A DNA stretch of 64,000 bases. Source: an uncultured Shimia sp. GTDB lineage: Bacteria; Pseudomonadota; Alphaproteobacteria; Rhodobacterales; Rhodobacteraceae. The DNA is taken from positions 1-64,000 of the forward strand of contig NZ_CANMJE010000014.1 of assembly GCF_947498095.1 (NCBI RefSeq). Direction: 5' to 3'. The stretch's first letter is position 1, and each line of letters opens with the position of its first letter. The position numbers and the translations under genes were made by a program. Positions 4,931 through 20,501 of the stretch are shown piece after piece. The notes beneath the pieces are model-generated. The model ran no database searches. It saw nothing but the letters and a program-made list of their open reading frames with translations, and was not told where the DNA came from.

Positions 4931-4963
4931 CCCGGCAAGCGTTAAGTTTGTCGGGCCTTTTTT
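4931..4963 (+). terminator. Rho-independent terminator, orphan
   Basis: CCCGGCAA and TTGTCGGG form an 8-bp stem (one G-T pair) with a loop of about 9 nt, followed by CCTTTTTT. No intact gene ends just upstream. The rest of 4654-5176 holds no reading frame I can support. The terminator probably belonged to a gene lost from this decayed island. Confidence 0.65.
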
Positions 4964-5176
4964 AGGGTGGAGTTATTCATTTTGCACTTAACCGGCAGAT
5001 TTTTTTGGTTTCACAACTAGCTATTCGCCTCATCCGCAGGTGCGATGCCCAGCTAGAATTTCCAAGCTGGCTAAATTGATCTTAGAAGTTTGATCTACGA
5101 AAAACATTTGTGCGACTTGTGCTTTTCTGCCAGAGTTGTCGACATTGAAATCGCTCCCTTCTTTGGTGCTTCCTTC

Positions 5177-6178: not shown

Positions 6179-6230
6179 TTTGCTTGCTCGTTGGGGCAAA
6201 GACCTAGATTGCTACAATTCTCCCTGCTTC

Positions 6231-7115: not shown

Positions 7116-7184
7116 TGTTTTGTCCTCTTGATACGATTGGGATTTAAGGACATCGGCACTTGATGGTTTGTGATTTTCCGACAA

Positions 7185-8147: not shown

Positions 8148-8167
8148 GGAATTTGGTAGGCCCGGCA
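8148..8167. repeat. att core copy 2 (junction between the two elements)
   Basis: This copy is identical over 20 bp to copies 1 and 3. With copy 3 the identity extends to 23 bp (ggtggaatttggtaggcccggca). It is the right end of the distal island and the left end of the capsid-encoding element. Confidence 0.9.
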
Positions 8168-8285
8168 ACTAACATACCCCCTGTCTCATGCCATCTCAAG
8201 AAGTATCATAAATCATTGTATATATTAGCTTTTATTATATAACTTGCCATTTCCTGTCTCACCAAATATCAGCGTGTCTCAAGAA

Positions 8286-8307
8286 ATCAGGGCACAATCA
8301 GGGCACA
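8286..8307 (+). repeat. Tandem 11-bp repeat, probable integrase arm-binding sites (left)
   Basis: Two adjacent copies of atcagggcaca lie about 120 bp inside the left core and directly before the integrase ATG at 8310. The same pair recurs at 20346-20368 near the other end. Placement at both ends inside the cores fits arm-type integrase sites. Here they would also let the integrase repress its own gene. Confidence 0.7.
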
Positions 8308-8309
8308 GC

Positions 8310-9488
8310 ATGGCACTTTCAGAAAGCAAAATCCGCACCGCAAAACCCCGCGATAAACGCTATCGGATGACCGACGGTGGTGGGCTGGTGATGGACGTCA
8401 CACCAGCAGGCAAGAAGGTCTGGCGCTACCGCCTACAGGCGGACGGGAAGGACCGCACCGTCACCTTGGGCGAATATCCTGCTATGGGGCTGCTGGACGC
8501 CCGTCAGACCGCCTTGGACCTCAAGCGTGACGATGTGGACCCCAAGGTCGCTGTGGCACGTCAGCAGGCCGCACAGGCTACGACGTTCCGCGATCTGGCC
8601 GAAGCCTACATGGAACGCGAGAAACCACATTGGGCCGATGGTCATCACCTGAGATTTAGAAACCGAATGGTCAACGATGTCTTTCCGGTCCTCGGTGACA
8701 TGGCACCGCGCGACATCCAGCCCGTCGATGTGATCCGCGCCGTTACCGGTATTCAAGACCGTGGGGCCACAGACACGGCTGTCAGGGTGGTCGGCATGAT
8801 AGGGCAGGTGATGCGCTACTGCGTGGCCCGAGGACAGGCGGACAGGGACGTCACAGCCGATCTAAAGGGTGGTCTGGACCGTCCACCCCCTGTGAAGCAC
8901 ATGGCCGCTGTGATCGACCGTGACGACCTCGGGCGCATGCTTGTCGACATTTGGGACTGGGCAGGGAATTCCTACGGCAAGCCACTCCTGCAATTGGCCG
9001 CGTATCTGTTCCAACGCCCCGGCGAGATACAGGCGATGCGTTGGGCCGACATCGATCTGGACAAAGCGCTCTGGACCTACACCGTCAGCAAGGTCGGCGT
9101 GGAGCATGCCGTGCCATTGCCAGCGCAGGCGGTCGAGATATTGCGGGAACTGCACAAACAGACCGGACGGTTTGAGTTCGTGTTCTACAGCCACAGCGCC
9201 AAAAGCGGACACGTCAGTCCACAGATCGCGGTCAAGCTATTGGACAAGATCGGTTGGCGGGATCGTCAAACGGTTCACGGGTTTCGCGCTATCGCCCGCA
9301 CGGTCATAGCCGAAGACTTAGGGGCCGAGCCGCGACTGATCGAACAGCAGTTGTCACACAGCGTTCCAGAGGTTCACGGCAAAGCCTACAACCGCACCAG
9401 ATTCATCAACGAACGGCGCAAAATGGTGCAGGAATATGCCGATCACCTGGACAAAATTCGCGCTAAAAATACGGGTGTATGCGCGTAG
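8310..9488 (+). CDS. int: Tyrosine-type site-specific integrase (P4/CP4-57 family)
   Basis: 392 residues from ATG 8310. The track-like longer frame from about 8244 would read through the arm repeats and adds residues unlike the family, whose proteins begin MALsesKIrtAKP. Order: DUF4102-type arm-binding domain (1-90), SAM-like core-binding domain (about 95-180), catalytic domain with Arg in LFQRPGEIQAMRW, HGFRAIARTV (HxxR), LSHSVPEVHGKAYNRT (His and nucleophile Tyr). All catalytic residues are present. It should recombine the 20-bp core with the tRNA 3' end. It is homologous to the dead integrase at 3719-4653 and both sit next to a core. Confidence 0.95.
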   Translation: MALSESKIRTAKPRDKRYRMTDGGGLVMDVTPAGKKVWRYRLQADGKDRTVTLGEYPAMGLLDARQTALDLKRDDVDPKVAVARQQAAQATTFRDLAEAYMEREKPHWADGHHLRFRNRMVNDVFPVLGDMAPRDIQPVDVIRAVTGIQDRGATDTAVRVVGMIGQVMRYCVARGQADRDVTADLKGGLDRPPPVKHMAAVIDRDDLGRMLVDIWDWAGNSYGKPLLQLAAYLFQRPGEIQAMRWADIDLDKALWTYTVSKVGVEHAVPLPAQAVEILRELHKQTGRFEFVFYSHSAKSGHVSPQIAVKLLDKIGWRDRQTVHGFRAIARTVIAEDLGAEPRLIEQQLSHSVPEVHGKAYNRTRFINERRKMVQEYADHLDKIRAKNTGVCA

Positions 9489-9628
9489 TTTTTTGGCATG
9501 TCATTGTTCGCACTGGTTTATTGGATATAAGAATTTCTATATATAAAACTAAGCAATAACAAGGGGTTGTGGAATCTTCCTCAAGTGAATTAGTGTTTCT
9601 CCAGATGTCACTATCAATGGAGAAAGAC

Positions 9629-9850
9629 ATGCAAAAAGCCGTACCAATGTTGCGTATGCCGCGCGTTCTGGAACTCACTGGCCTTAGTCGGCCTGTCCTT
9701 TACCGTCTTGTTAAAAAGGGCAAGTTCCCAAAGCCCAAACAGGTTAGCCCGAATGTCATCGCGTGGCCTGAATCTGTGATTGCCGAATGGCAGGCAAACC
9801 TGCCCGAAAGCACCATTAAATCCTGCAATCCGAAGGTGGGTGCGGTATGA
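9629..9850 (+). CDS. AlpA-family DNA-binding regulator / excisionase-like
   Basis: About 73 residues from ATG 9629, with GGAG six bases upstream. An MerR-like winged helix of AlpA type is visible: MLRMPRVLELTGLSRPVLYRLVKKGKFPKP followed by VIAWPESVIAEW. In P4-like elements AlpA proteins activate integrase expression or assist excision, and I infer the same here from its place right after int. The stop overlaps the start of the DUF3102-like gene (ATGA), so the two are translationally coupled. Confidence 0.85.
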   Translation: MQKAVPMLRMPRVLELTGLSRPVLYRLVKKGKFPKPKQVSPNVIAWPESVIAEWQANLPESTIKSCNPKVGAV

Positions 9851-10734
9851 CCCGTCTCGCTACGGTATCCCACGTGACGGACCGGGCTATCATTGAGGCG
9901 GCACAGGCGTTTGTGCGTGAAGCCGAGTCCGTGGTGGTCCGTGGCGTCAAGCTGGGTCACATGCTGAACGAACGTAAACGGGACACCCCGCACGGTCAGT
10001 GGACCCCGTGGGTGGAAGAAAACCTGCCGTTCGGTATCAGCTTTGCACAGAAGTTGATGAAGCTGGCCGACAACGAACAGGTCATTACATCAAATGCCGC
10101 ATCGGTTCCGCTTTTGACCATCAACGATGCGCTGGCGGTTGCGCGCGGTAAACCCGCACCGAAGCCACAACCACAGCCGCAGCCGAAGCCCGCACCAGCA
10201 CAGCCACAGGCCACGCTTGGGGACTTGGAAGCCACGTTGTCAGCATCGGCCAAGGTGCGGCTGGACAAGACCGTCGAGGCGCACAAGGCCGCGCTGGATG
10301 AAGCCCATGACATGGTGTTGCGGACCGTTGAGAAAAAACACAAAGCCGAAATCGACCGACTGGCATGGGAACGCCTTGATGCCATATTGCCCGGTTTCGA
10401 AGAACGGGTGAAGAAAGCGGAACGGTGGATGCGCAAGGATAAGCCGTTCACACAAGCCGAATTCAAATTGCTGACGATGGCAACACACCCCGACAAGTTT
10501 GGTGATAAGAAGCAAGCTGCCGCATCGGACCTTCACAAGAGGTTGCGGGACATGGGTGATGCGCTGGTAACCAAGCCAAGATCATTGCCTGATCGAATGC
10601 CGTCGCTGGATGAAATCCGTGCCAGTCACGCGTCACGGATCGAACAGAAAATGACCAAGCGTGAACGTCACGCACGGGGCTTGGCGTTCGACATGCTGCG
10701 TCGGCTGTATCCCGATTTTTACGGTGACACCTGA
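9847..10734 (+). CDS. DUF3102-like protein with Pro/Gln linker and J-domain-like HPD segment
   Basis: 295 residues in three parts. Residues 1-100 resemble DUF3102 (VVRGVKLGHMLNERKRDTPHGQWTPWVEENLPFGISFAQKLMKLAD), a domain common near plasmid and phage replication genes. Residues about 103-125 are a low-complexity KPxPQPQPQPKPAPAQPQ linker. The C-terminal half is helical and contains FKLLTMATHPDKFGDKKQAAASDLHKRL, which has the HPD tripeptide and flanking helices of a DnaJ J domain. The gene sits between alpA and the RepA-like ATPase, so I infer a role in replication control or helicase loading. Function is not demonstrated for the family. Confidence 0.6.
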   Translation: MTRLATVSHVTDRAIIEAAQAFVREAESVVVRGVKLGHMLNERKRDTPHGQWTPWVEENLPFGISFAQKLMKLADNEQVITSNAASVPLLTINDALAVARGKPAPKPQPQPQPKPAPAQPQATLGDLEATLSASAKVRLDKTVEAHKAALDEAHDMVLRTVEKKHKAEIDRLAWERLDAILPGFEERVKKAERWMRKDKPFTQAEFKLLTMATHPDKFGDKKQAAASDLHKRLRDMGDALVTKPRSLPDRMPSLDEIRASHASRIEQKMTKRERHARGLAFDMLRRLYPDFYGDT

Positions 10735-10790
10735 ACGACCCTGACACACTTGAATAACTGATCCTTGCCGAGTGTGTCGGCCAAAAGAAA

Positions 10791-10819
10791 ACCCGTCGCG
10801 CTGCGAGGGCGCGACGGGT
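10791..10819 (-). terminator. Strong hairpin with T-run on the minus strand
   Basis: A perfect 10-bp stem ACCCGTCGCG/CGCGACGGGT with a 9-nt loop. The minus strand reads into TTTTCTTTT, so it is terminator-like in that direction. On the plus strand there is no T-run, so it may instead attenuate or protect mRNA between the DUF3102-like gene and repA. No minus-strand gene lies nearby to need it. Confidence 0.45.
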
Positions 10820-10856
10820 CCAACAACAACCCGCGATCTGCAAGGAACAGGCCGTC

Positions 10857-12050
10857 ATGAATGACATAGTACAATACCCACCGGGAGTGGTACAGCAACC
10901 GACTCTGTCTTACGAAGAAACCATTGCCCGCGAACGGGCGATTTTCGCAAGCATGAAGGCTGAAGCACAAGTTCGGCAATTGACCACCGCAACAGACTTG
11001 CCCCGAAACTGGCCGCACATTGGAACTTGGGAAGATCGGGTCAGGGATCACGAAGGTGATGTCGAATACCTGGTGCCTGACCTGATACCGCGTGGCCTGA
11101 TCACAACGCTGTTCGGGCGCGACGGGATCGGTAAGTCGTTTCTGATGATGTACGTGAGCATGTGTCTTGCCGTAGGCAGATGCCCTCTGACCAACGACTC
11201 AGGGGGCACACCACTGCGCGTGTGGTTCTTGTCCACCGAAGACCCCGAACGCGCCATTGTGAGCCGTTTCAAGGCGATCAGTGAATCCCTATGCCTCGAC
11301 CCATACGAGGAATCCCAACTGTCTCAGAACTTCGTCATGCCGCAGATGAAGGGCATAGACACCTGTTTGCAGATCACCGGGAAAGGTGGCCAACCAACTG
11401 CGTCACAATATGCGCGGATGTTGGAACGTGCGCTTGACCAAGGCGCACCCGATCTTCTGGCAATGGACCCGATCAGCGATCTGTTCAGGGGCAACCAGAA
11501 CGCGGCAAACGATGTCGCCCCGTTCCTCTGGTACTGTGAGACGCTGGCCGACCGGTACAACATGGCACTTGCCCTGATCGGTCACCCTGCCAAGGACGAA
11601 GAATCGCGGTACGCTGGGCACTCGCTGTGGTCCAGCAAGTCCCGTAGTCGGCTGTTCCTGTTCTGCGAGAAAAACGTCACGTGGTTGGAACAGGACAAGC
11701 GCACCAACGGCCCGAAGGCGAAACCGATCAGATTGAAGTGGAACGATGGTGTTCTTGCCCCGGTGTCCGAACTGGAACAAGGCGACACGGACCGTGCGAT
11801 CCGTCAGGCCATTGAGGAAGGATTGCCCCACTGGGCCGCTCGTGGCGAAGTGGTCTCTGTGGCCAACACCGCGCCGAACAAGATGCACAAGATGTTACCC
11901 GACTATGATGAAGCCGATGTGCGCCGTATAACGGGCCAACTATGTGCCGACGGCACGTTACGGACCGTTGAGTTTGATGGCACCGATAATGTTCCAGACA
12001 TACGTAACAAGCGTAACGTAGCCAAGAAAGGTGTGTGGTGGAACAAGTGA
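10857..12050 (+). CDS. RepA-like hexameric AAA ATPase (AAA_25), replication helicase type
   Basis: 397 residues. Walker A is GRDGIGKSFLMMY (about residue 90), Walker B is DLLAMDPISDLF, and LALIGHPAKD is the sensor-like strand. The overall shape is that of the RecA-fold family that includes RSF1010 RepA and many satellite and integrative-element helicases. The C-terminal 110 residues (after about 285) look like a winged-helix region. It should unwind DNA at the element origin, for which the repeat cluster at 12301-12430 is a candidate. No primase gene is recognisable, so priming would rely on the host or an unknown partner. Confidence 0.8.
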   Translation: MNDIVQYPPGVVQQPTLSYEETIARERAIFASMKAEAQVRQLTTATDLPRNWPHIGTWEDRVRDHEGDVEYLVPDLIPRGLITTLFGRDGIGKSFLMMYVSMCLAVGRCPLTNDSGGTPLRVWFLSTEDPERAIVSRFKAISESLCLDPYEESQLSQNFVMPQMKGIDTCLQITGKGGQPTASQYARMLERALDQGAPDLLAMDPISDLFRGNQNAANDVAPFLWYCETLADRYNMALALIGHPAKDEESRYAGHSLWSSKSRSRLFLFCEKNVTWLEQDKRTNGPKAKPIRLKWNDGVLAPVSELEQGDTDRAIRQAIEEGLPHWAARGEVVSVANTAPNKMHKMLPDYDEADVRRITGQLCADGTLRTVEFDGTDNVPDIRNKRNVAKKGVWWNK

Positions 12051-12144
12051 AGAACTACTGCTGAACAACTGCTGAACTACTTCCCAGTGGTTCTTTGCAC
12101 CTTACAAAGACGGTTCGTTGGCTGGTGTCCTTGCGCTCCGCTGA

Positions 12145-12172
12145 ACTACTACCCCCTGTAAGGGGGAGTAGT
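12145..12172. other. GC-rich hairpin in the 12.05-12.63 kb gene gap
   Basis: ACTACT-A-CCCCCT pairs with AGGGGG-AGTAGT (12 pairs, one bulged A, 3-nt loop). It lies 95 bases after the ATPase gene and before the iteron-like repeats. Several copies of CTGAACTACT-like words surround it. No T-run follows, so an origin structure is as likely as a terminator. Confidence 0.5.
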
Positions 12173-12300
12173 AGCAGCAGCGTCACCGGACAACCAACAC
12201 GACATTGTTAACGCAGTAGCGTTGGTGTGATGAACCACTATCCACCCGCAAGTATGTCACGCACCGCACGCATATAACCGTCACACCATATGCCCACCAC

Positions 12301-12430
12301 GCAACGACAGCGTCCCATCACGCAACGACAGCCCAACCACCAACGACAAGCAACGACACGACCTGCCACACCACCAGCATCATCACATCCGCAACGGCAC
12401 GACCTGCACCGTCATCGTCACGCAACGGCC
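12301..12430 (+). repeat. Iteron-like repeat cluster, candidate replication origin
   Basis: Six copies of (g)caacg(a/g)c(a/c) occur at 12301, 12322, 12340, 12350, 12391 and 12422. The gaps of 21, 18, 10, 41 and 31 bp are close to whole helical turns, so most copies face the same side of the helix. The cluster lies downstream of the RepA-like ATPase gene in a gap with no supported gene. These properties fit initiator-binding iterons. A 96-codon frame over it is Thr/Gln/Arg/His-rich purely because of the repeats. Confidence 0.6.
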
Positions 12431-12626
12431 TATAACGGGTCGGCTATATCCATCAGGGGCGGGGTGTTCCGTAACTTCGACTTGGGGGTCACCACCGCAC
12501 AGGGGAGAGAGATTCTAGAACTAATCCGAAAAATGACCCCCCTGTACCAACCTTCCAGTTACTGGAATCTTGCGCTATAATAGGCCGTCCGCGCGCCCCG
12601 ACGGGTGTCCTTGTTTGTGGGGAATC

Positions 12627-12845
12627 ATGATCGAAGACCGTGAATTTATGCGTCGAATCCGCCTAGAAGCGATGATCCGTCACGCTCGACGGTGTATTGC
12701 CAGAACCGCTGGCAGACCGACCACGTATGAGACGGATGGCGTCGAGCATTTCATCACCTGCGCTGGTGTTCACATCCACGTCGCCCCGGACAGCAAATCC
12801 AGCAAGCAAATCCTGCAACAGTGGTGCAATGAGGCGAACATATGA
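12627..12845 (+). CDS. Small hypothetical protein
   Basis: 72 residues from ATG 12627, preceded by GTGGGGA. It is basic at the N-terminus (FMRRIRLEAMIRHARRCIARTAGRP) with a predicted beta-rich C-terminal half. I do not recognise the family. The stop overlaps the start of the next gene (ATGA), which supports it as a real first gene of a coupled pair after the candidate origin. Confidence 0.55.
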   Translation: MIEDREFMRRIRLEAMIRHARRCIARTAGRPTTYETDGVEHFITCAGVHIHVAPDSKSSKQILQQWCNEANI

Positions 12846-13102
12846 GATTGAACCCCGCGCTTTTGGCTGACGCCGCTGACTGCAATCGACACCTGCGGTG
12901 GATTGAAGGTGAGACGATCCCCAAAGTGGCACGTGCTGGCCCTCGTATGGGTGAAGGTATCCAGCGCAGGGCCAAAACGTGCTGTGCGTCCTGCGACAAA
13001 CTCATGGCTCCGGGGTTTAAGAAATACCGAGGTGATCCGTGGTGCGGTCGACAATCTTGCGCGGTTCGTTTGGACCGTTGGTGGAATAAAAGTACGACAT
13101 AA
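12842..13102 (+). CDS. Small protein with zinc-binding-type cysteine pairs
   Basis: 86 residues. CCASC and, about 25 residues on, WCGRQSC form a CxxC...CxxxxC arrangement like a compact zinc ribbon. The family is not recognised. It is coupled to the preceding gene by a 4-bp overlap. In satellites, small zinc proteins in this position are often regulators or DNA-binding factors, but that is only inference. Confidence 0.55.
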   Translation: MRLNPALLADAADCNRHLRWIEGETIPKVARAGPRMGEGIQRRAKTCCASCDKLMAPGFKKYRGDPWCGRQSCAVRLDRWWNKSTT

Positions 13103-13195
13103 ACCACTGATTTATTTCGTTTTTGTCGTACCTAAAATCTATACAGACGCAAAATCCATGAGCATACTTGTCGACAACCAAGGATGGATCGACGT

Positions 13196-13729
13196 ATGCC
13201 CAGCATCAAAACAGCCCCCACAGCATCCCGAAAACTGATTAAGTCGCTGGCCTTTCGCCGCCGCGAACTATTCCTGACGGCCAAACAGGCTCGTGATGGT
13301 GTAGCAGGCGCGGACCGTGAGACGGACACCCAGATCGCGCGTATCCGCAAACACGTCCATCGAGCCACCGAGGCCACCGAGGCCGCACAAGCTGCCGCTG
13401 ATGACTTCAACACCGCATCCCTCATTCTGAAATCTGGTACCGACTGTGGACCCCTTTCCAGTCCGGTATCCAGACTCGCAGCGCTTTCTGTCCGGTTGGG
13501 AGGGAGTTCGGCCCTGACCGATCTGGTGGAAAGCGCTGCACACCAAGCCCGAGATGCCGCAACCCTGTCGCAAGATCGCCTCGACAATTTTAGCGACGAC
13601 ATCGCGGCATCACTGGCCGCTTGTGATCTGGTCGAGGCGCAACGTGACGGTGATGACGCCCGCGTCCGCCGCACTCGACGCAAATACCAATTCCACAAAG
13701 ACGCACACTCCGAGAGGACCGCCCGATGA
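13196..13729 (+). CDS. Hypothetical helical protein upstream of capsid genes
   Basis: 177 residues from ATG 13196 (GGATGG nine bases upstream); ATG 13184 would add four. The protein is Ala/Asp/Arg-rich and predicted almost wholly helical, with coiled-coil-like stretches (RATEATEAAQAAADDF, QDRLDNFSDDIAASLAAC). No motif is recognised. It overlaps the next gene by ATGA and begins the run that leads into the major capsid gene. A scaffold, small-terminase-like or head-size role is possible but cannot be argued from sequence. Confidence 0.6.
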   Translation: MPSIKTAPTASRKLIKSLAFRRRELFLTAKQARDGVAGADRETDTQIARIRKHVHRATEATEAAQAAADDFNTASLILKSGTDCGPLSSPVSRLAALSVRLGGSSALTDLVESAAHQARDAATLSQDRLDNFSDDIAASLAACDLVEAQRDGDDARVRRTRRKYQFHKDAHSERTAR

Positions 13730-14163
13730 CCAACCCCTTTAAAGACACGGGAACCAATCCATACGATTTACCTGGTGGCCCCTCTGCGACCCGATCTGCC
13801 AACTCTGACGGCATGATCGGCATCGGTGGGGGTGTTGGTATCAAGGGTGACCAGATCGTCACGATGGATGCTGCCGCTGGCACCGTGAACCCCGCTGGCC
13901 AAGCCCTTTTGCGCTTCATTCTCGGTCGTGTGGACCAGCGCGAAGCGGCAATGGCCGAAGTGATCGGCAAGCTGATCGCCAAACACATCCAGCCTTATGA
14001 ACGCCGGATCGATGAACTGGAAAAAGCCCTCGACCAAGCCCGGTCCGATGTGTCCGACGCGATCCGCACCAGCGTGGTCGGATACTTGGATGACGCCCCG
14101 ACGCTGGATGAACTCGACAAGATGGCCAAGCGCCACAAGAAAACGATGGAGCAAAACCAATGA
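13726..14163 (+). CDS. Hypothetical protein directly before the major capsid gene
   Basis: 145 residues, coupled at both ends by 4-bp overlaps. The N-terminal 60 residues are Gly/Pro/Asn-rich and probably disordered (MTNPFKDTGTNPYDLPGGP, GIGGGVGIKGDQ). The rest is helical with a heptad-like segment (YERRIDELEKALDQARSDV). The slot just before an HK97-type capsid gene normally holds a protease or scaffold. No protease motif is seen, so a scaffold-like role is the more plausible guess. Confidence 0.6.
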   Translation: MTNPFKDTGTNPYDLPGGPSATRSANSDGMIGIGGGVGIKGDQIVTMDAAAGTVNPAGQALLRFILGRVDQREAAMAEVIGKLIAKHIQPYERRIDELEKALDQARSDVSDAIRTSVVGYLDDAPTLDELDKMAKRHKKTMEQNQ

Positions 14164-15533
14164 CCCTTTTCCAAGGCAACACCACCGCCGACCGCAAGGC
14201 TCGCACAGCCCTCGAAAACGAGACCAAGGCCGCTGCTTTTGACGATGCTCTGGCAATGGCCAAAGACGCGCCGAAGACGGCCCGAGAACTGGCCGCAACC
14301 AAGGCTGAACTGGCCGCACTGCGCAAAACGGTTGATCGTCCCGTCCATGTGACTGTCCGACCGCCTGCCGAGCCTAAGAAGGCCGCGAAACAGGCCCAGC
14401 TATCATCCCTGCGTCTTCTGTCTGCGGCTGCTTATGGCGGCATGAAACAGCACGCCGATCAGGGCCATATCCACGCCCATGTCGAAAAGCTATTCGGGGA
14501 TCGCAACACGCACCAGCATGTGATCCGCGATGCGACATCCGTGGCGACCACAACGTCCGCTGGTTGGGGTGCAGAACTCACCAATTCCATGAGCGTGGGT
14601 TTCATCCGTGATCTGGCACAAACGTCCTGTGCTGCCCAACTGATCGCCCGTGCTGGTATCCAGCCGTTCAACGGTGCCAACTCGCTCACATGGGGCATGC
14701 GTGCTGACGACGCCAAAGGCGACATGAAACCCTCTTGGGTGGCTGAAGGCGCGACCATCCCTGTGATGCAATCTCGGTTTAGTTCCGTGACCCTTGCCCG
14801 TCACAAGCTGGGTGCGATTGCTACGGCATCGGACGAACTGATCCGTGTATCAAATCCGGCGATCCTGAACCTGATCGAAGAATTTGTCAGGGAAGATGCC
14901 AGCACCGGACTCGATGACAGCATGTTCAATCCGAACCTTGCGGAAATTGCTGCGGTTCGTCCGTCCAGCCTGACCTACAATGCCACCAACGACGCCAGTG
15001 ATGGCGGCTCGACCCTTGCCGACATCCTGAAGGACATAAAATGGCTGCGGTCGGAAATGTCTGCGGTCAACGCTGTCGACCCGGTAATCCTAATCCACAG
15101 CGACCGCTACATGGCGCTGCAAATGGTGACCAGCACCGACGGCAACAGCTTCCCGCTGCGTGACGAACTGGCCAGCACTGGTGGTTTGTTCGGTGTGCCG
15201 ATCATGCACAGCCCGTACATGAACGCACAGCACGCCATTGCGCTTGATGCTGCCCGTCTGGTCGTCGCAATGGATGGTGTCCACGTGGACACATCCAGCG
15301 CTGTGACGCTTGTGATGGCTGATGCGGATGGTGTTGCCCCGACAATGCTTGATGCGGGTGCTGTGAACGACAGTGGCGGATCGATCCACGTGTCCGATGC
15401 GGCTGGTACCACACCACCCCCACAGGTGCGCGGCATGTTCCAGACATCCTCGACCGCGATCCGGTTGGTCATCCCGATGACCTACAAGATGTTGAAACCG
15501 TCCGTCGCGTACCTAACGAACGTGCTTTGGTGA
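14160..15533 (+). CDS. Phage major capsid protein, HK97-fold type
   Basis: 457 residues. The first 100 are helical (ALENETKAAAF, ELAATKAELAALRKTVDRP) and look like the delta or scaffolding domain that HK97-type capsid proteins carry before cleavage. The body has family hallmarks: TTTSAGWGAELTN, PSWVAEGATIPVMQSRFSSVTLARHKLGAIATASDELIRVSNPAILNLIEEFVREDASTGLDDSMF (the spine-helix region), a P-domain with ILIHSDRYMALQMV, and LFGVPIMHSPYMN. It lies in an element without portal, terminase or protease. It may build a satellite-specific (perhaps smaller) head, as capsid-forming satellites do. That is inference. Confidence 0.9.
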   Translation: MTLFQGNTTADRKARTALENETKAAAFDDALAMAKDAPKTARELAATKAELAALRKTVDRPVHVTVRPPAEPKKAAKQAQLSSLRLLSAAAYGGMKQHADQGHIHAHVEKLFGDRNTHQHVIRDATSVATTTSAGWGAELTNSMSVGFIRDLAQTSCAAQLIARAGIQPFNGANSLTWGMRADDAKGDMKPSWVAEGATIPVMQSRFSSVTLARHKLGAIATASDELIRVSNPAILNLIEEFVREDASTGLDDSMFNPNLAEIAAVRPSSLTYNATNDASDGGSTLADILKDIKWLRSEMSAVNAVDPVILIHSDRYMALQMVTSTDGNSFPLRDELASTGGLFGVPIMHSPYMNAQHAIALDAARLVVAMDGVHVDTSSAVTLVMADADGVAPTMLDAGAVNDSGGSIHVSDAAGTTPPPQVRGMFQTSSTAIRLVIPMTYKMLKPSVAYLTNVLW

Positions 15534-15537
15534 TCTG

Positions 15538-15840
15538 ATGGGTATGCGTATCGTAAAAGCCAATCCTGATCCGCTGACCGCAAGCGTGGTGACGGTCAAC
15601 GCCTGTACTGCGGACGTCACGATCCGTGCGGGCGATCAGGTGCGTATCTCGGACACTGGCGACATCCGCACTGCAATTGGCCTCTATCTGATCGACAATG
15701 GTTTCACCGGAAACGAGACGATTCACATCCGCACTTTGCAGCGGTCCGAGTGGGCTTGTCAGTCGAACGAATACACCAACCTTGCGTCCGGTCTGACGAA
15801 GACCAAGGCGGCGAAACTCAGGAAGGCGTCCCGCCCATGA
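15538..15840 (+). CDS. Small protein downstream of the capsid gene (head-associated?)
   Basis: 100 residues starting 4 bases after the capsid stop (ATG 15538; ATG 15544 is an alternative). The first 75 residues are beta-rich (VVTVNACTADVTIRAGDQVRI), the tail is basic. I do not recognise a family. Immediate position after the major capsid gene suggests a head decoration or head-completion protein. The stop overlaps the next ATG. Confidence 0.6.
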   Translation: MGMRIVKANPDPLTASVVTVNACTADVTIRAGDQVRISDTGDIRTAIGLYLIDNGFTGNETIHIRTLQRSEWACQSNEYTNLASGLTKTKAAKLRKASRP

Positions 15841-16037
15841 GTGAGCGCATCCCGATCTACACGAAACAAGGCGTAGCCACCGGCCAGACGGTCGATCCGT
15901 CACGGTACGACATGCGGTCGATCCCTAGTCGCGGTCTGGTGGCGCTTGGACATCGTGTCGGTCGGGACGGTCTGCCCGAGTGGTCGCGGATATTTGTGAA
16001 ACAAGGAGACCTGCCCGATGACACCCCAACGGAATAA
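15837..16037 (+). CDS. Small protein, paralogue A of a tandem pair
   Basis: 66 residues. It aligns with the next gene product along nearly its whole length: GxxTGQTxDxxRxD, then GLVxxG about 10 residues on, an aromatic W, and a final DLP. The family is unknown. The start is coupled to the preceding gene (ATGA) and the next gene begins inside its last 20 bases. A duplicated small structural protein is the simplest reading. Confidence 0.65.
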   Translation: MSERIPIYTKQGVATGQTVDPSRYDMRSIPSRGLVALGHRVGRDGLPEWSRIFVKQGDLPDDTPTE

Positions 16038-16200
16038 ATACGGCACCCTGACGGGCCAGACGTTCGATGAAACCCGCTTTGATCTGCAAAAGACCGTGGT
16101 ACCTGGACTCGTCCAGATGGGCCGATCACAGGCCATGCACGGCAGGGCCGATGATGCCGACTGGTGGCCTGTCTATGCTCTGGCGACCGACTTGCCGTGA
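16018..16200 (+). CDS. Small protein, paralogue B of a tandem pair
   Basis: 60 residues. LTGQTFDETRFD, GLVQMG, DADWW and the C-terminal DLP repeat the pattern of the preceding protein. The start lies 20 bases inside the preceding gene in another frame. The duplication with retained pattern shows both are translated proteins under selection rather than chance frames. Confidence 0.65.
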   Translation: MTPQRNKYGTLTGQTFDETRFDLQKTVVPGLVQMGRSQAMHGRADDADWWPVYALATDLP

Positions 16201-16223
16201 CCCGCAAAAAGAGGACCAAAAAG

Positions 16224-16391
16224 ATGCCTTTGGACATGACCGGACAACCAGACCGACCGCAAGTCGACCGTGATGCGGTTGCGCTGGCCCTACAGCGAGA
16301 ACTGGGCCGACCCTTGGCGTGGTCCGAGTATGTCCGCATCTGGAACGTGACGACCGACAAGATGGGTCGGTCGGATTTTATCCGCGACTGA
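16224..16391 (+). CDS. Small hypothetical protein
   Basis: 55 residues from ATG 16224, which has AGAGGA upstream. A GTG at 16197 overlapping the preceding stop is a possible longer start that adds a basic TRKKRTKK tail. The core (DRDAVALALQRELGRPLAWSEYVRIWN) is helical. Unrecognised. The stop overlaps the next ATG as TGATG. Confidence 0.5.
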   Translation: MPLDMTGQPDRPQVDRDAVALALQRELGRPLAWSEYVRIWNVTTDKMGRSDFIRD

Positions 16392-16678
16392 TGACGATCC
16401 GTGATCAGATACTCGCCGCGCTTGATCCCTTTGTCGCGCTCGGTCTGCCGGTCAATGTAGGCGTGGTGGACCTGAGTGGGTCACGGGTGGAAGTGGTTGC
16501 CCAGATCGGCCCTCTGACGGTCCTGTCTGGTCGGATACCGGCGACGTCTCAGGCTGTGGATGACCTCTTGGCGCGGCAGGGATGGATGTTGGCGGCACTC
16601 TATCGCCTTCAAGGTGGGCCACGCTCACCAACCAGTCTGCAAACCAATGTCCCGCCATATCTGACCCCCGTCGCATAA
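16391..16678 (+). CDS. Small hypothetical protein, last of the capsid-region run
   Basis: 95 residues from ATG 16391, coupled to the previous stop. It is a compact alpha/beta-like sequence (IRDQILAALDPFVALGLPVNVGVVDL, VEVVAQIGPLTVLSG). No family is recognised. It ends the overlapping gene series that starts at 12627; about 260 bases follow before the next gene. Confidence 0.55.
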   Translation: MTIRDQILAALDPFVALGLPVNVGVVDLSGSRVEVVAQIGPLTVLSGRIPATSQAVDDLLARQGWMLAALYRLQGGPRSPTSLQTNVPPYLTPVA

Positions 16679-16815
16679 CCTAGCCGATACGGTCCGTTGT
16701 GTCATTGTGGCTGGTACCTGGTATCTGGTGGCCGGGGGTATGCCGAGACCTAAGCCCGACAGATCGCCACCGCACACCGAAGCACGGAAAGTTACACAGC
16801 GGGGCTTAATGCTCT

Positions 16816-16883
16816 TTTTGTAACGAGTATTTAAGCCTATTCGCCATTATGATGGCCAATTAATAAAAATAACCGTTACAAAA
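16816..16883. promoter_or_regulatory. Inverted repeat upstream of the SprT-like gene
   Basis: TTTTGTAACG (16816-16825) and CGTTACAAAA (16874-16883) are exact inverses 48 bp apart, in the AT-rich gap before the gene at 16938. They look like two operator half-sites or two binding sites for a regulator. A 27-codon frame at 16740-16823 overlaps the left arm and I do not call it a gene. Confidence 0.45.
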
Positions 16884-16937
16884 GCGCTTGCACATACCGC
16901 GTTTCGCTCCTATTTCGGTCTCGAAAAGGGGAAACAG

Positions 16938-17594
16938 ATGCGCAAGAAAGCCACAACACGGGAAGTTATCCGGGCCGAAGCCTTGGGTAAAACCGTATCC
17001 AAACAAACAATGATCAAGACGGAACGCTTTGTTGAAGGCGTGTTCTCTGAACTGACGGACCTGCCTATTTCCCTTCGTCACGATTGGACTATCCGGTCTT
17101 TGACCGCGAAGAAGTCAGTGAGCAAAGGCGGGAAATACAAGGCGCGGTTCCGTAACTATGAGTTGGACGCCGCCGATCAGTTTGGTGAAGACGGTGCAGG
17201 TGTTGCGCTGCGTCTGATCCGCTATGTTGATGACGATACGGATTTTGACGCTTTGGTCGATTGGACTGAATATCCTTCGTTTGCCGCCGATCCCGAAATC
17301 GGAAGCCTGTTTCGCATAACCACATGGGACTCCCTGCGCTGCCTTGTGGCGCACGAAGTGGCCCATGCTGTCGATTTCCACCAAGGTGGCGATGGTGGTC
17401 ATCGTGAAAGCTGGAAGGCGATCTATCGCGACTATCGCAAGCGTCTGGGATTGGTCCGTGTCGCCCCGTTAACCTCAACGGCGACAGACACAACCTGCAA
17501 CCACTGCGGAGAACTTTTCATCCCCGCCCGTAAGAATACAAAGTATTGCAGCACCAAGTGCCGTGTCGCAGCGCACCGGGAGTCGAAGCGATGA
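16938..17594 (+). CDS. SprT-like zinc metalloprotease domain protein with C-terminal zinc finger
   Basis: 218 residues. The HExxH motif is VAHEVAHAVDFHQ near residue 140, with the third His in GGHRESWKAIYRDYRKRLG about 15 residues on, as in the SprT family (bacterial SprT, eukaryotic Spartan). The tail CNHCGELFIPARKNTKYCSTKC is a CxxC...CxxxC zinc finger. SprT-type proteins act on DNA-protein crosslinks or bind DNA, so a role in element replication or host interference is possible. A GC-matched start ATG 16938 follows GGGGAAACAG. Its stop overlaps the next start (ATGA). Confidence 0.8.
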   Translation: MRKKATTREVIRAEALGKTVSKQTMIKTERFVEGVFSELTDLPISLRHDWTIRSLTAKKSVSKGGKYKARFRNYELDAADQFGEDGAGVALRLIRYVDDDTDFDALVDWTEYPSFAADPEIGSLFRITTWDSLRCLVAHEVAHAVDFHQGGDGGHRESWKAIYRDYRKRLGLVRVAPLTSTATDTTCNHCGELFIPARKNTKYCSTKCRVAAHRESKR

Positions 17595-17875
17595 CCAGCA
17601 TCACCCGCAAGATCGGCGCGAACCGTGGCAAGCCCCGGCTCTGGCTGGAAGGCAAGGTGCTGGTGTCGGCTGGTCTGGACCATGGCAACCGCTGGAACCT
17701 CGTTCCGGTGGAAGGTGGTCTTGATCTGGTCCGAAGCGATGACGGCAAGCGCAAGATCGCCGGAAAGCCCGGTCGACCCATCATCGATCTGGCTGGCGCA
17801 TCGGTCCCTTGGCCCACTGGTACCGTCGTGACGCTGACCTTTAAGCAAGGCAAAGGAGTCATCCATGTCAGATAA
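17591..17875 (+). CDS. Small beta-rich protein resembling the N-terminal region of some cytosine methyltransferases
   Basis: 94 residues from ATG 17591. The sequence KIGANRGKPRLWLEGKVLVSAG, LVPVEGGLDLV, KRKIAGKPGRPIIDL and VTLTFKQGKGVIHV resembles, from memory, the accessory N-terminal segment (NRG.pRiWLEG...sGk...PviD...GvI.l) of some Dcm-type methyltransferases. Here it stands alone with no methyltransferase after it. A role in DNA binding is conceivable. Confidence in the comparison is modest. Confidence 0.5.
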   Translation: MTSITRKIGANRGKPRLWLEGKVLVSAGLDHGNRWNLVPVEGGLDLVRSDDGKRKIAGKPGRPIIDLAGASVPWPTGTVVTLTFKQGKGVIHVR

Positions 17876-18047
17876 TATCGTCCAGTTTCCGACCGCATAT
17901 GAGCCATACGAGGCCCAGCCACAGCCCGTCTCGGTCCGAGTGGTCCTGACACCACCCCCTGCGCCTTTCCTGACGCCTTTGGGCGTACTGGTGGCTGTGT
18001 TGGCTGGTGTGGTGACGTTTGTCGCGGTGTCGGCTTTGATAGGGTAG
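17865..18047 (+). CDS. Small single-pass membrane protein
   Basis: 60 residues. A Pro/Gln-rich cytoplasmic-like N-terminus is followed by one hydrophobic helix (FLTPLGVLVAVLAGVVTFVAVSALIG) that ends at the C-terminus. AAAGGAGTC precedes ATG 17865, and the start overlaps the previous gene by 11 bases. Tail-anchored small proteins in phages can be holin-like or superinfection-exclusion factors; nothing here distinguishes these. Confidence 0.55.
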   Translation: MSDNIVQFPTAYEPYEAQPQPVSVRVVLTPPPAPFLTPLGVLVAVLAGVVTFVAVSALIG

Positions 18048-18059
18048 TGCTTGGCAGGA

Positions 18060-18635
18060 TCAGCGCTCAGAAATGGCCTTCGCCACCGAAGAAATGATAG
18101 CTTCTATATTGTCGTCAGACTGACGGCAGTCGAACGTCATTACATAAACGCTTTGTAGCGCTTGGCCCGGTTCCATGATGGAAATCCCGAGGCTCGATAC
18201 ATACATTCCCTGCCAGTCATTCTTGTAATATCTTCTCAAGGAAAGTGTTCGATTCCCCAGGAATTGCTTCGACATTTTGATGGTATCTGGGCTGAATAAT
18301 GAATCAGAGAAATGGTCGCTGAAAACCAATCTGGTGGAGTTTACTTCCACAATACCATCTCCACTCATAGCCGAGTCGATTAGGATGTCTTGATATGTGT
18401 TTCCAAAATTTACGGATAAGGTCATGCTGTCGCTGCCATGAGTGGAATAAGTAACTCTCAAGCTATCACCAAGACTGAGACTATCTTCGTAACCAGAATA
18501 TTCTACTGGTTTGCCCTCCTCAATTCCGATGATCTTTTGGCTGTTGATGGTGCAATCCATTGAGCCTTCAATGTACTCAGCAAAAGCGGGTGTCGAGCAA
18601 AGGGCGAAGCAAACGGCCAGAAATGTCTCTTTCAT
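18060..18635 (-). CDS. Secreted hypothetical protein (cargo)
   Basis: 191 residues from ATG 18635. A signal peptide is clear (MKETFLAVCFALCSTPAFA) with likely cleavage at AFA-E. Two Cys (MDCTINS near the start and TFDCRQS near the end) could pair in the periplasm. No domain recognised. It is the first of the minus-strand genes at the right end of the satellite, so probably cargo with its own promoter. Base composition is less GC-rich than the neighbouring structural genes, suggesting a different origin. Confidence 0.65.
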   Translation of the reverse strand: MKETFLAVCFALCSTPAFAEYIEGSMDCTINSQKIIGIEEGKPVEYSGYEDSLSLGDSLRVTYSTHGSDSMTLSVNFGNTYQDILIDSAMSGDGIVEVNSTRLVFSDHFSDSLFSPDTIKMSKQFLGNRTLSLRRYYKNDWQGMYVSSLGISIMEPGQALQSVYVMTFDCRQSDDNIEAIISSVAKAISER

Positions 18636-18820
18636 AAAATCATCCAATCATGCGTTCTAGGCTTATGAATAAAGCCTGACGGCGAAATCAATCTTTGAGG
18701 TTCGCCACATCGACAGCCGACAATCCGCCGCCCTGACTGACCTCAGAACTGAGCTTCGCGCAATGAAATCTCCAACGTCGCCTGCACATCGATCCTGCAT
18801 TGGTTTTCCCTGCAAGGGAT

Positions 18821-19351
18821 CTATGTTGAGGCTCGTGCGCGGCGAGATTTCCTGCGCGCGGCGATTGCGCCAAAACACCCTAGACCACCTATTAAGAGCA
18901 TTCCCGCAGCGGGAAGTGGTACTGGAGCGGGTGCTTCGATGCCTTCGGCCTCAAAGCTATAACCAACCAAGAAAAAGTGAGCACTGAACCAAGCCCCCAT
19001 TCGATGCCACCCGTCGACATCCCAATCAACACTGACTTTATAATTTTCGCCATCGGGATTAAACGTGACATAACGTGGATCAGGGTACCTTGGGTCGCTA
19101 TAGTCGTAATTGTAAATCGTGCGATCACCATTGAAGTATGGGATGTTGAAAAACAGTTCGGTGATTTTTCCCTTGCCCAAGTTCCATTCGATTGGTTGGA
19201 TGTAGCTGATTTCCATGCCCAGACCTTCCCAATAGCGATTGTGCTGACTGAAAACGGCCGGGTTATCCTCGTCGATCATGTATGTTGTCGCGGACGCAGT
19301 ACCGGCAAAAGCCAATAGTGCAATCAGAGAAGTCGTAGTTAAGCTTTTCAA
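18821..19351 (-). CDS. VPLPA-CTERM sorting-domain surface protein (cargo)
   Basis: 176 residues. Signal peptide MKSLTTTSLIALLAFAGTASA, a Tyr/Asp-rich middle (YNYDYSDPRYPDPRYVTF), then PVPLPAAGMLLIGGLGCFGAIAARRK. The end is the VPLPA motif, a transmembrane helix and a basic cluster, the tripartite VPLPA-CTERM signal known from Rhodobacteraceae and processed by an exosortase. It should be exported and released or anchored at the surface. No exosortase gene is in the window, so a host enzyme would act. An unusual passenger for a satellite. Confidence 0.8.
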   Translation of the reverse strand: MKSLTTTSLIALLAFAGTASATTYMIDEDNPAVFSQHNRYWEGLGMEISYIQPIEWNLGKGKITELFFNIPYFNGDRTIYNYDYSDPRYPDPRYVTFNPDGENYKVSVDWDVDGWHRMGAWFSAHFFLVGYSFEAEGIEAPAPVPLPAAGMLLIGGLGCFGAIAARRKSRRARAST

Positions 19352-19461
19352 ATCTTTTCTCCAAAAACATCGTCTTTGGATTTTACTTAATGTTTCTCGC
19401 TCAACAGTATTTTCGAATGGTGGTCAAAAGCTTGCTTTATTACGCCAAAGCAAGTTGGGCT

Positions 19462-19755
19462 TCATTTCAACCGCTCGACCTTATCACCACCCCGATTGAT
19501 GTCAGCGCCAAGCATGGCGTCCTGTGCCGCTCCGTCGCCGTGATAGACCAGCCGGTAATCTTTGACCTTATGCTGTCCACAGCGGCGACACCGCGCCCGC
19601 TCAACGGCCTGTGCGACCGTCTCGGGTGGTTTGCTCAATGCGAGCAATACCGGTACTGGCAGGCTGGCATGGTGACCGCAGGCACACTCGCACCAGATCA
19701 AATGTTTCGGGATACTGGTCAGGCGTGTTCCGCCAGCTTTGAGTCGTGCCACCAT
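19462..19755 (-). CDS. Small protein with a zinc-ribbon-like Cys/His pattern
   Basis: 97 residues from ATG 19755. WCECACGHHASLPV and RCRRCGQHK give CxCxxHH...CxxC, likely one zinc site. The end is basic and polar. Unrecognised. It is on the minus strand between the XRE regulator and the surface protein. No overlap supports translation, so confidence is moderate. Confidence 0.5.
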   Translation of the reverse strand: MVARLKAGGTRLTSIPKHLIWCECACGHHASLPVPVLLALSKPPETVAQAVERARCRRCGQHKVKDYRLVYHGDGAAQDAMLGADINRGGDKVERLK

Positions 19756-19788
19756 GTTTTTGGGTGTACTGGAAGTGAAACGGTACGG

Positions 19789-20121
19789 CTACCTTGATTG
19801 CTTCGCCCGCTTTGCGATGAGAAACTCAATTTGCGCTGCGAGTGCCTCAGCTTCGGATGGTTCCAGCAATTCTACTAAGTTTAGCAATTTGTTGTCTTCG
19901 AGGACTATCTCACACTTCAAAAACTGTTCGAGAGTTTTGCCGTAACAATGAGCTACACGTAGAGCGTTCTCGACTGTTGTGGTAGCTCCAGCACGTAATT
20001 TGACCTTGGTTAAAGCGCCCCGTGAGACGCCAGAGTGACGACACACTTCTGCAAGTGTCAGTCCCTCGTTTTCCAAGTGCCAAATCAAGGCGTTTTTGAA
20101 TAGGCCGTCCACAAATTCCAC
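19789..20121 (-). CDS. XRE-family transcriptional regulator (repressor-like)
   Basis: 110 residues from a GTG at 20121; no ATG is available. The helix-turn-helix is LTLAEVCRHSGVSRGALTKVK followed by TTTVENALRVAHCYGKTLEQFL. The C-terminal 40 residues are helical and acidic and may dimerise. Located at the end of the satellite and transcribed against int and the structural genes, it is the best candidate for the element's maintenance repressor. Its operator is not obvious. Confidence 0.75.
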   Translation of the reverse strand: MEFVDGLFKNALIWHLENEGLTLAEVCRHSGVSRGALTKVKLRAGATTTVENALRVAHCYGKTLEQFLKCEIVLEDNKLLNLVELLEPSEAEALAAQIEFLIAKRAKQSR

Positions 20122-20345
20122 ACACTTTTTGGTTGCTAAAACATTTATGTGCAGAAGGGCGATTGTTGGTCAATGTTTCCAATAGCCGCCTATACCTCAG
20201 TTTCTTTCTGGCAAAACGTAAAACGGCCCGCACAAGACGGACCGTTTAGTGAGACATCATCGCAAGCCATAACTGGGACTGCATCATCCAGCCTGACCGC
20301 TCCGTCTCGGGTGGACAATGGCACGGGCAGGGCGGAACGTAAAGA

Positions 20346-20368
20346 ATCAGGGCACACATCAGGGCACA
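20346..20368 (+). repeat. Two 11-bp repeats, probable integrase arm-binding sites (right)
   Basis: Two copies of atcagggcaca with a 1-bp spacer lie 50 bp inside att copy 3. They match the pair at 8286-8307. The rest of the gap 20122-20418 holds no gene I can support. Confidence 0.7.
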
Positions 20369-20418
20369 GATTTCTCCGTGATCCACCTAAGTGATTGTTT
20401 TAGAGGTGATATTATGGT

Positions 20419-20438
20419 GGAATTTGGTAGGCCCGGCA
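20419..20438. repeat. att core copy 3 (overlaps the tRNA 3' end)
   Basis: The 20-bp core covers the CCA end and the last acceptor bases of the tRNA gene. Integration here keeps the tRNA whole, as is usual for tRNA-targeting tyrosine recombinases. Confidence 0.9.
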
Positions 20439-20501
20439 GGACTTGAACCCGCAACCAAAGCGTTATGAGCGCTCTGCTCTAACCAATTGAGCTACAGGCC
20501 C
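20425..20501 (-). tRNA. tRNA with CAT anticodon (Ile2 or elongator Met), integration target
   Basis: 77 nt on the minus strand: acceptor GGGCCTG, D-arm GCTCAATTGGTTAGAGC, anticodon loop CTCATAA, T-arm TTCAAGTC, encoded CCA. The acceptor has a G1-T72 wobble and no C-A mismatch, so it is not the initiator. CAT can be read as Met, or as Ile2 when lysidine is added. The GGGCCtG acceptor and AGCGC anticodon stem favour Ile2 slightly, but tilS-type identity needs comparison. Both mobile elements entered at its 3' end. Confidence 0.92.

What the first reader, a model, noticed from the sequence alone, without database searches (positions are those of the whole stretch)
8168..20418. Satellite-like element that encodes its own HK97-type capsid protein but no packaging or tail genes
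A complete integrase, AlpA regulator, RepA-like ATPase and repressor are joined to a major capsid gene inside a run of overlapping genes. No terminase, portal, maturation protease, tail or lysis gene is recognisable in 12 kb. Known satellites with own capsids (capsid-forming PICIs) also carry packaging genes, so this would be a leaner type. It suggests parasitism of a helper phage through the capsid.
Basis: partly seen in the sequence, partly recalled or inferred. Interest (0 to 1): 0.85.

Follow-up and report, generated by a model that had tools for sequence, protein, structure and literature searches.

The report
Phage satellite carrying its own capsid
A 12-kb piece of mobile DNA in a bacterium of the roseobacter group carries a gene for a virus shell but no recognisable gene for filling it or giving it a tail, and relatives in other bacteria suggest that it belongs to an old family of virus parasites, some of which also bring their own tail-length ruler.

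Summary
Window 8145-20438 is a 12.27-kb integrative element in the 3' end of a tRNA-Met gene: 23-bp direct repeats, intact integrase, AlpA, AAA_25 ATPase, and an HK97-fold capsid gene in an overlapping gene run. No terminase, portal, protease or tail gene was found.

It is not a lone oddity. I fetched 13 such elements from 9 genomes of one Rhodobacterales family (a second copy in the same genome). Their capsid proteins, plus that of a decayed fourteenth, form one clade (100/99) apart from the protease-bearing phages. Profiles for large terminase, portal and protease hit none of the 13. Six of 13 carry a short tape-measure gene, four a probable small terminase, none both; the window has neither, but keeps the gene that follows the tape measure in two relatives.

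Best reading: a satellite that supplies its own capsid and borrows packaging motor, portal, protease and tail from an incoming phage. No virion or helper was seen, and IMG/VR scans found no member. Satellites with a capsid homologue are known (SaPIbov5 Ccm; cf-PICIs), so this is a new variant; I found no report of a tape-measure-carrying satellite in the papers searched.

The parts
8145..8167 (+). attL, 23-bp direct repeat
   Evidence: exact match to 20416-20438
8285..8307 (+). two arm-type integrase sites (AATCAGGGCAC x2)
   Evidence: tandem repeat; the exact 10-mer occurs only at the two element ends; role inferred
8307..9488 (+). tyrosine integrase, intact (start codon uncertain)
   Evidence: PF22022 2.4e-25, PF13356, PF00589, phrog_1 7e-56; catalytic residues in place
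9614..9850 (+). AlpA-type excisionase/regulator (start codon uncertain)
   Evidence: phrog_2790 6e-13
9847..10734 (+). DUF3102 protein, role unknown (replication or partition inferred)
   Evidence: PF11300 1.9e-7; L008 has a protein at the same position that hits the same phrog_15609
10857..12050 (+). AAA_25 RepA-like ATPase/helicase (replication inferred)
   Evidence: PF13481 2.3e-25
12051..12569 (.). repeat-bearing region, probably non-coding; candidate origin or packaging site
   Evidence: short direct repeats; function inferred
12570..12845 (+). small protein C24
   Evidence: homologues in L044, L047, L048, L049
12842..13102 (+). small protein C25
   Evidence: homologues in L008, L042, L044
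13184..13729 (+). C5, all-helical 181-aa protein, candidate scaffold or minor head protein
   Evidence: in 10 of 13 elements; six-helix model, pLDDT 87.5; no confident fold match
13726..14163 (+). C9, candidate scaffold directly upstream of the capsid gene
   Evidence: in 11 of 13 elements; the L046 member hits Phage_scaffold 9.1e-5, under the cut-off, and other coiled-coil families
14160..15533 (+). HK97-fold major capsid protein without a protease domain
   Evidence: PF05065, TIGR01554, phrog_617; HK97 prohead I Z 13.2; dN/dS about 0.10 against the L007 copy
15538..15840 (+). small protein following the capsid gene
   Evidence: homologues in 7 of the 12 other elements: L007, L008, L046-L049, L085
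15828..16037 (+). small protein, paralogue of the next gene
   Evidence: its profile picks up 16018-16200
16018..16200 (+). small protein C45
   Evidence: homologues in L007, L042, L044
16197..16391 (+). small protein C23
   Evidence: homologues in L007, L008, L042, L044
16388..16678 (+). C33, the gene that follows the tape-measure gene in L042 and L044
   Evidence: 2e-17 with the C33 profile
16938..17594 (+). SprT-like / zinc-ribbon protein
   Evidence: PF10263 1.1e-4, below cut-off; C10 homologues in L047, L049, L014
17591..18047 (+). two small proteins (17591-17875, 17865-18047)
   Evidence: ORFs; the second has a homologue in L008
18060..18647 (-). small protein, possible cargo
   Evidence: ORF; no family hit
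18821..19351 (-). VPLPA-CTERM protein, probable cargo
   Evidence: TIGR03370 6.4e-8
19462..19755 (-). small protein shared with L008
   Evidence: 9e-55
19789..20121 (-). HTH repressor (weak assignment)
   Evidence: HTH_3 18.1 bits, cut-off 23
20346..20368 (+). two arm-type integrase sites
   Evidence: role inferred
20416..20438 (+). attR, overlapping the 3' end of tRNA-Met

Best explanation
A phage satellite of a distinct family found so far in one family of Rhodobacterales. It integrates at tRNA-Met with its own integrase and arm sites (shown by anatomy), is held by a repressor and AlpA, and replicates with its own AAA_25 ATPase (inferred from families). On infection by a helper phage it makes its own HK97-type capsid protein, with one or two helical proteins as likely scaffolds (inferred). 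These build, alone or mixed with the helper's capsid protein, a head of satellite size around the helper's portal; the helper's protease, terminase and tail complete it (inferred). Sister elements add either a small terminase (packaging choice) or a short tape-measure protein (tail length); the window's element has neither.
For: Mobile and intact: att repeats, empty sites in 4 of 7 relatives fetched, arm sites, intact integrase. Capsid under purifying selection, dN/dS about 0.10 between the two copies of this genome, dS near saturation. Recurrent: 13 elements in 9 genomes, one capsid clade at 98/98 with 12 elements and 100/99 with 13 plus decayed L086. Iterated profiles for large terminase, portal and protease hit 0 of 13 elements, but 12, 12 and 13 of 14 related phage-type loci from which they were grown. 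Portal PF04860 (8 genomes) and terminase PF03237 (the same 8): no hit lies inside a fetched element. 97 ORFs of 11 elements scanned with Pfam (capsid strand, 75 aa or more, without the capsid, integrase and primase clusters): the only phage structural or packaging hits were tape measure, Terminase_4 and Phage_scaffold. A known satellite redirects its helper's head with a capsid homologue (PMC8569155).
Against: No particle, excision or helper was seen. Six pattern scans of IMG/VR gave only loci with terminase and/or protease, or nothing (gene checks in 74, 101, 121). The window's genome has no PF03354 or PF03237 terminase and no PF04860 portal, so no resident helper of these types was seen; other families were not tried. 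The terminase profile is not universal: it found none in L088, L090 or L091, which carry a related portal. The element itself has no recognised packaging-redirecting gene. L007 and L009 look partly decayed.
Confidence: 0.62

Rival explanations
1. Decayed prophage: a small remnant of a full phage that lost terminase, portal and tail, with the capsid left behind by chance.
For: Related phages do carry terminase, protease, capsid and portal together. Some family members are decayed (L086 capsid truncated; L007 and L009 truncated). A decayed integrase element lies next door (3546-8144).
Against: 13 elements lack the same genes and share one capsid clade apart from the phages. Strong purifying selection on the capsid. 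Intact integrase and overlapping genes. Accessory genes C5 and C9, in 10 and 11 of 13 elements, were found in none of the 14 phage-type loci.
Confidence: 0.12
2. Capsid as a weapon only: the protein co-assembles with and poisons an invading phage's head, as defence for the host or the element, without packaging the element.
For: A lone capsid homologue with no packaging genes fits a dominant-negative part. Ccm of SaPIbov5 cannot form shells by itself (PMC8569155).
Against: The module travels with integrase and replication genes. Relatives add a small terminase or a tape measure, which point to particle production. No PADLOC hit at E 0.01 among 10 window proteins, though PADLOC would not list an unknown capsid decoy.
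Confidence: 0.12
3. Parasite of the host's gene transfer agent (GTA), with the capsid protein replacing the GTA head protein.
For: Strong portal and terminase hits about 1 kb apart, as in a GTA cluster (recalled layout), occur in G502, G526, G591, G636 and G213, 5 of the 8 carrier genomes searched.
Against: The window's genome has neither; G543 (two elements) and G240 lack the portal, although each has a PF03237 hit. GTA heads hold only a few kb (recalled), the element 12.3 kb.
Confidence: 0.05
4. Autonomous small phage whose terminase and portal are too divergent to recognise.
For: Many small genes are unassigned. The terminase profile misses some real phages (L088, L090).
Against: No unassigned window ORF exceeds 220 aa. 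The other 12 elements, in loci of 17-20 kb, also show none.
Confidence: 0.04
5. Encapsulin-like compartment on an island, not a virus head.
For: The model also matches encapsulins at nearly the same Z.
Against: Sequence families and tree place it with phage capsids. It has an N-terminal helical region as phage delta domains do (comparison recalled).
Confidence: 0.02

Closest known systems
cos-type SaPI (SaPIbov5) with Ccm
   Same: An integrated satellite with an HK97-fold capsid homologue; [quoted passage not shown]
   Different: Different phylum. The capsid protein here belongs to another phage-related lineage, sits in a gene run with C5 and C9, and sister elements carry a tape measure or a small terminase. 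Whether it co-assembles with a helper capsid is unknown.
capsid-forming PICI (cf-PICI)
   Same: Own HK97-type capsid gene, integrated element, helper tail presumed. The cf-PICI EcCI2 capsid is among the fold matches (9gyi_B, Z 11.4).
   Different: cf-PICIs also encode protease, portal, head-tail connectors and both terminase subunits (PMC10690885, passages). Here large terminase, portal and protease were found in none of 13 elements.
P4-like satellites, PLE, PICI
   Same: Size, integrase plus AlpA-type regulator, own replication module (recalled for the known families).
   Different: They resize the helper's capsid with scaffold-type or other proteins instead of bringing a capsid protein (recalled; start of the PLE abstract seen).
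PICMI, VEIME, tycheposon (marine satellites)
   Same: Marine integrative elements moved by phages.
   Different: PICMIs carry no capsid-remodelling genes (PMC10803314, passages). The VEIME and tycheposon papers did not come up in the library, so overlap with them is not excluded.
HK97-like phages L015-L018 (IMG/VR) and L012 (Bradyrhizobium)
   Same: 28-33% identical capsid protein. The L015, L016, L018 and L019 small terminases are homologous to those of four family members.
   Different: They carry a large terminase, a protease fused to the capsid or just before it (L016), and, except in the 4.35-kb contig L015, a portal.

Membership tests
cf-PICI | own major capsid protein | tested here: met
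cf-PICI | own portal, maturation protease and large terminase | tested here: not met
   0 of 13 elements by iterated profiles; no unassigned window ORF long enough
cf-PICI | borrows helper tail | not testable with these tools
   needs a helper phage and particles
Ccm-type (cos SaPI) satellite | satellite-encoded capsid homologue | tested here: met
Ccm-type (cos SaPI) satellite | capsid homologue mixed into a helper's shell | not testable with these tools
   no helper known; closest phages found 28-33% identical to the window's protein
Ccm-type (cos SaPI) satellite | staphylococcal SaPI backbone | not tested
   host family is in Rhodobacterales; no SaPI models were run
phage satellite (general) | discrete integrated element with integrase and att repeats | tested here: met
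phage satellite (general) | lacks genes for an autonomous virion | tested here: met
phage satellite (general) | mobilised in helper-phage particles | not testable with these tools
   no particle data; IMG/VR pattern scans found no member
prophage | terminase, portal, tail and lysis genes | tested here: not met
GTA-dependent element | GTA present in the carrier genome | tested here: not met
   G000 has no PF04860 or PF03237 match
P4-like satellite | P4 marker set (psu, delta, sid, alpha primase; recalled) | not tested
   no P4-specific models were run; 20 window proteins gave no such name in PHROGs

The most novel reading that the evidence does not exclude
An old satellite family that replaces the two size-setting parts of a tailed virion, the shell protein and, in about half of its known members, the tape measure, while borrowing motor, portal, protease and the rest of the tail, so that it dictates both head and tail size of chimeric particles. 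Capsid and tape-measure genes are swapped between co-resident elements.
Probability: 0.35. Interest if true: 0.8.

Novelty: new variant of a known kind. Interest (0 to 1): 0.63.

Why it matters
It fills the gap between satellites that only reshape a helper's head and cf-PICIs that bring the whole head and motor: here the shell protein (and in sisters a tape measure or small terminase) seems to have been kept for a long time without portal, motor or protease. If true, a capsid protein only about 30% like the phage capsids found here must still fit a helper's portal and protease, which makes the question of which contacts fix head and tail compatibility testable in culturable bacteria. It also warns that a lone 'phage major capsid protein' gene in this group need not mean a dead prophage.

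Tried and rejected
GTA as helper: rejected as a general rule, because the window's genome has no PF04860 portal or PF03237 terminase. Undetected terminase or portal in the window: rejected on ORF size and profiles. Deletion remnant of a near relative: rejected on the capsid clade and selection.

Searches that led nowhere or only to distant hits: megablast of the element against phages and plasmids, no match. tblastn of the window capsid: 22 phage and 26 plasmid records, all under 60% identity, none covering 80% of it; of the L042 capsid against plasmids: 15 records, 10 listed, 8 of these annotated as phage capsid. Tape measure against phages: 412 records, none covering 80%, in the rows listed mostly its C-terminal part. 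Single-protein IMG/VR scans with three queries, no relative; alignment scans gave loci with terminase and/or protease only. Fold searches for C5 gave no match at E 0.001 or better. Terminator-like sites 14 against 12.2 expected, promoter-like 3 against 6.4: not informative. PADLOC on 10 window proteins gave nothing at E 0.01. Two literature ideas (Charybdis elements PMC12324425; tycheposon mention in PMC10187409) turned out to be other things.

Controls and rows to know about. The terminase, portal and protease profiles were grown from the same phage-type loci that serve as control. The terminase profile missed L021 and gave nothing significant in L088, L090 and L091, which have a related portal. 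The PHROG scan of 97 ORFs shows only the first 25 of 106 families, so I lean on the Pfam scan (all 20 families shown); both leave out the window, L085, minus-strand ORFs, ORFs under 75 aa and some L047 genes. The tree left out four capsid-cluster entries: the separate protease ORFs of L016 and L019, the near-copy L023, and L014; one search adds L014 and seven new loci. There L014, L087 and L089 also look like capsid genes without terminase or portal but fall among phages, not in this family; they were not resolved. 'Satellite' and 'phage' labels were given by gene content before the trees; sampling started from satellite queries, which may favour the clade. The capsid model is of modest confidence (mean pLDDT 58.3). 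Element ends other than the window's were not fixed by att repeats.


Full report
What is there. The element spans 8145-20438: a 23-bp exact direct repeat, the right copy in the 3' end of tRNA-Met 20425-20501. Two copies of ATCAGGGCAC lie just inside each end and nowhere else exactly in 64 kb (TRF rows at 8285 and 20346). All 25 genus genomes searched match the tRNA region; I fetched 7, and in 4 of them (L066, L067, L069, L070) the gene that ends at window 2596 lies about 20 bp from this tRNA; the other 3 carry other DNA there. A third repeat copy at 3546 (22 of 23) bounds a 4.6-kb neighbour with an integrase fragment at 4069-4500 (read from the sequence). So the site is an integration hotspot with two elements in tandem, and the right one looks intact.

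Gene content. Integrase, AlpA, DUF3102 protein and AAA_25 ATPase form the left arm. After a 520-bp stretch with short repeats comes a run of mostly overlapping genes from 12570 to 16678 with the capsid gene in the middle, then a SprT-like protein and small genes, and on the minus strand two possible cargo genes, a small gene and a weakly assigned HTH repressor. The capsid assignment rests on PF05065 7e-10, TIGR01554 2.8e-12 and phrog_617 1.3e-22; the family profile also finds solved capsid proteins (best 9d9w 1.6e-7). The AlphaFold model (mean pLDDT 58.3) matches HK97 prohead I at Z 13.2, rmsd 3.8 over 234 residues. Encapsulins match at nearly the same Z, so the fold alone does not separate them; sequence and tree do.

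Relatives. The capsid gene was searched in 394 genomes of the family (5 with a match), 390 of the order (11), 385 of the class (8), 25 of the genus (5) and 398 of the phylum (13); these samples overlap, and many of the weaker matches are ordinary phage capsids or were not followed. From them I fetched 13 elements in 9 genomes: the window; a second copy in the same genome (L007, capsid 76% identical); L008 (also found as L013, titled Phaeobacter marinintestinus, now Falsiphaeobacter, Roseobacteraceae, Rhodobacterales); L009; L042 and L044 in one genome; L043; L045; L046; L047, L048 and L049 in one genome; and L085. All carriers are in the window's family in the search tool's grouping. L086 is a decayed fourteenth. 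In the window's own genome the two elements hold the only two PF05065 capsid genes, and PF03354, PF03237, PF04860 and PF09718 have no match there; other terminase families were not tried.

Absent genes, with a control. Profiles grown from the related phages found large terminase, portal and protease in 0 of 13 elements, against 12, 12 and 13 of 14 phage-type loci (the misses are L014 for all three, L021 for terminase and L015, a 4.35-kb contig, for portal). The control is partly circular, as the profiles come from these loci, and the terminase profile gave nothing significant in three further loci with a related portal (L088, L090, L091). Genome-wide portal and terminase hits in the 8 carrier genomes searched never fell inside a fetched element (G651 was not in those searches). 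In 11 of the 13 phage-type loci with a detected protease, protease and capsid lie in one open frame of 636-832 aa (stop to stop); in L016 and L019 they are two neighbouring ORFs. The capsid ORFs of the first 12 elements are 437-502 aa, without a protease match.

Variable genes. Tape measure: 6 of 13 (L042, L044, L046-L049), by PHROG 'tail length tape measure' down to 3.7e-25 and Pfam Tape_meas_lam_C in 4 of the 97 ORFs scanned. Five are 535-596 aa, short for this protein class (lambda's is about 850 aa, recalled). Small terminase: 4 of 13 (L007, L008, L043, L045); the L043 member hits Terminase_4 at 4e-5, just below the cut-off, L045 0.0091, L008 0.057, but the family profile also joins the genes directly upstream of the large terminase in L015, L016, L018 and L019. 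No element has both; window, L009 and L085 have neither. With so few, partly related elements this exclusion may be chance. In L042 and L044 the tape-measure gene is followed by C33; the window has a C33 homologue (2e-17) overlapping the end of C23 by 4 bp, as if the tape measure (with C13 in L044) had been lost or never inserted. C5 is in 10 and C9 in 11 of 13 elements, and in none of the 14 phage-type loci. C5 is modelled as six helices (pLDDT 87.5) without a fold match.

Evolution. With 12 elements and 13 phages the element capsids are one side of a branch at 98/98; with more rows the 13 elements plus decayed L086 are one clade at 100/99. Members are as little as 30% identical, so the lineage is probably old. 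Capsid dN/dS between window and L007 is 0.10 with dS 1.9, near saturation. In the genome with three elements, L047 and L049 share 97% of the capsid protein but 60% of the tape measure, while L048 and L049 share 63% and 86%: the two genes appear to be exchanged separately, which a set of dead remnants would not be expected to show.

How it probably works. Shown: a discrete, intact-looking, recurrent integrative element with a conserved capsid gene under selection and no recognisable motor, portal or protease. Inferred: induction by a helper phage, replication by its own ATPase, assembly of a head with its own capsid protein around the helper's portal, and use of helper terminase, protease and tail. 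The closest worked precedent is SaPIbov5 Ccm, a capsid homologue that changes head shape by taking the pentamer positions and cannot form shells alone (PMC8569155, passages). cf-PICIs carry the whole head and packaging set (PMC10690885, passages).

Novelty. Nine searches of the paper library (listings and abstract starts seen) gave no description of Rhodobacterales satellites with a capsid gene but no motor, nor of a satellite with its own tape measure. The library lacks most subscription papers, and the VEIME and tycheposon papers did not come up in it, so this is weak evidence of absence. PMC12324425 (abstract and passages), PMC10803314 (passages), PMC11389934 (passages) and PMC10187409 (passages) were consulted and describe other elements.

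Weak points. No member was found in IMG/VR and no helper is known. Assignment of small terminase and scaffold is weak. The element ends were established only for the window. Sampling was seeded with satellite capsids.

Noticed in passing
window 3546-8144: A second, decayed integrative element in tandem at the same tRNA-Met, bounded by a 22/23 copy of the att repeat, with an integrase fragment at 4069-4500.
   Followed up: partly
whole genome G000: The window's genome shows no PF04860 portal and no PF03237 terminase, while genus mates G502 and G526 have strong hits of both about 1 kb apart; it may have lost its gene transfer agent.
   Followed up: no
L047, L048, L049 (G502): Three elements of the family in one genome, with capsid and tape-measure genes apparently exchanged separately (97% vs 60%, 63% vs 86% identity).
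   Followed up: partly
L014, L087, L089: Other alphaproteobacterial loci with an integrase-like gene and a capsid gene but no terminase or portal found by these profiles; they fall in other branches of the tree, so lone-capsid elements may have arisen more than once. L087 has a weak small-terminase hit (7.6e-3).
   Followed up: partly
window 18821-19351: VPLPA-CTERM (exosortase-type sorting, recalled) protein as probable cargo; L007 also carries a PEP-CTERM protein at 6817-7515.
   Followed up: no
window 15828-16200: Two neighbouring small genes look like tandem paralogues of one family found in L007, L042 and L044.
   Followed up: no
L044:11529-12047 (-): By its sequence an HNH-type homing endonuclease gene inside the element next to C5; one search lists one HNH_3 and one AP2 hit without naming the ORF.
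   Followed up: no
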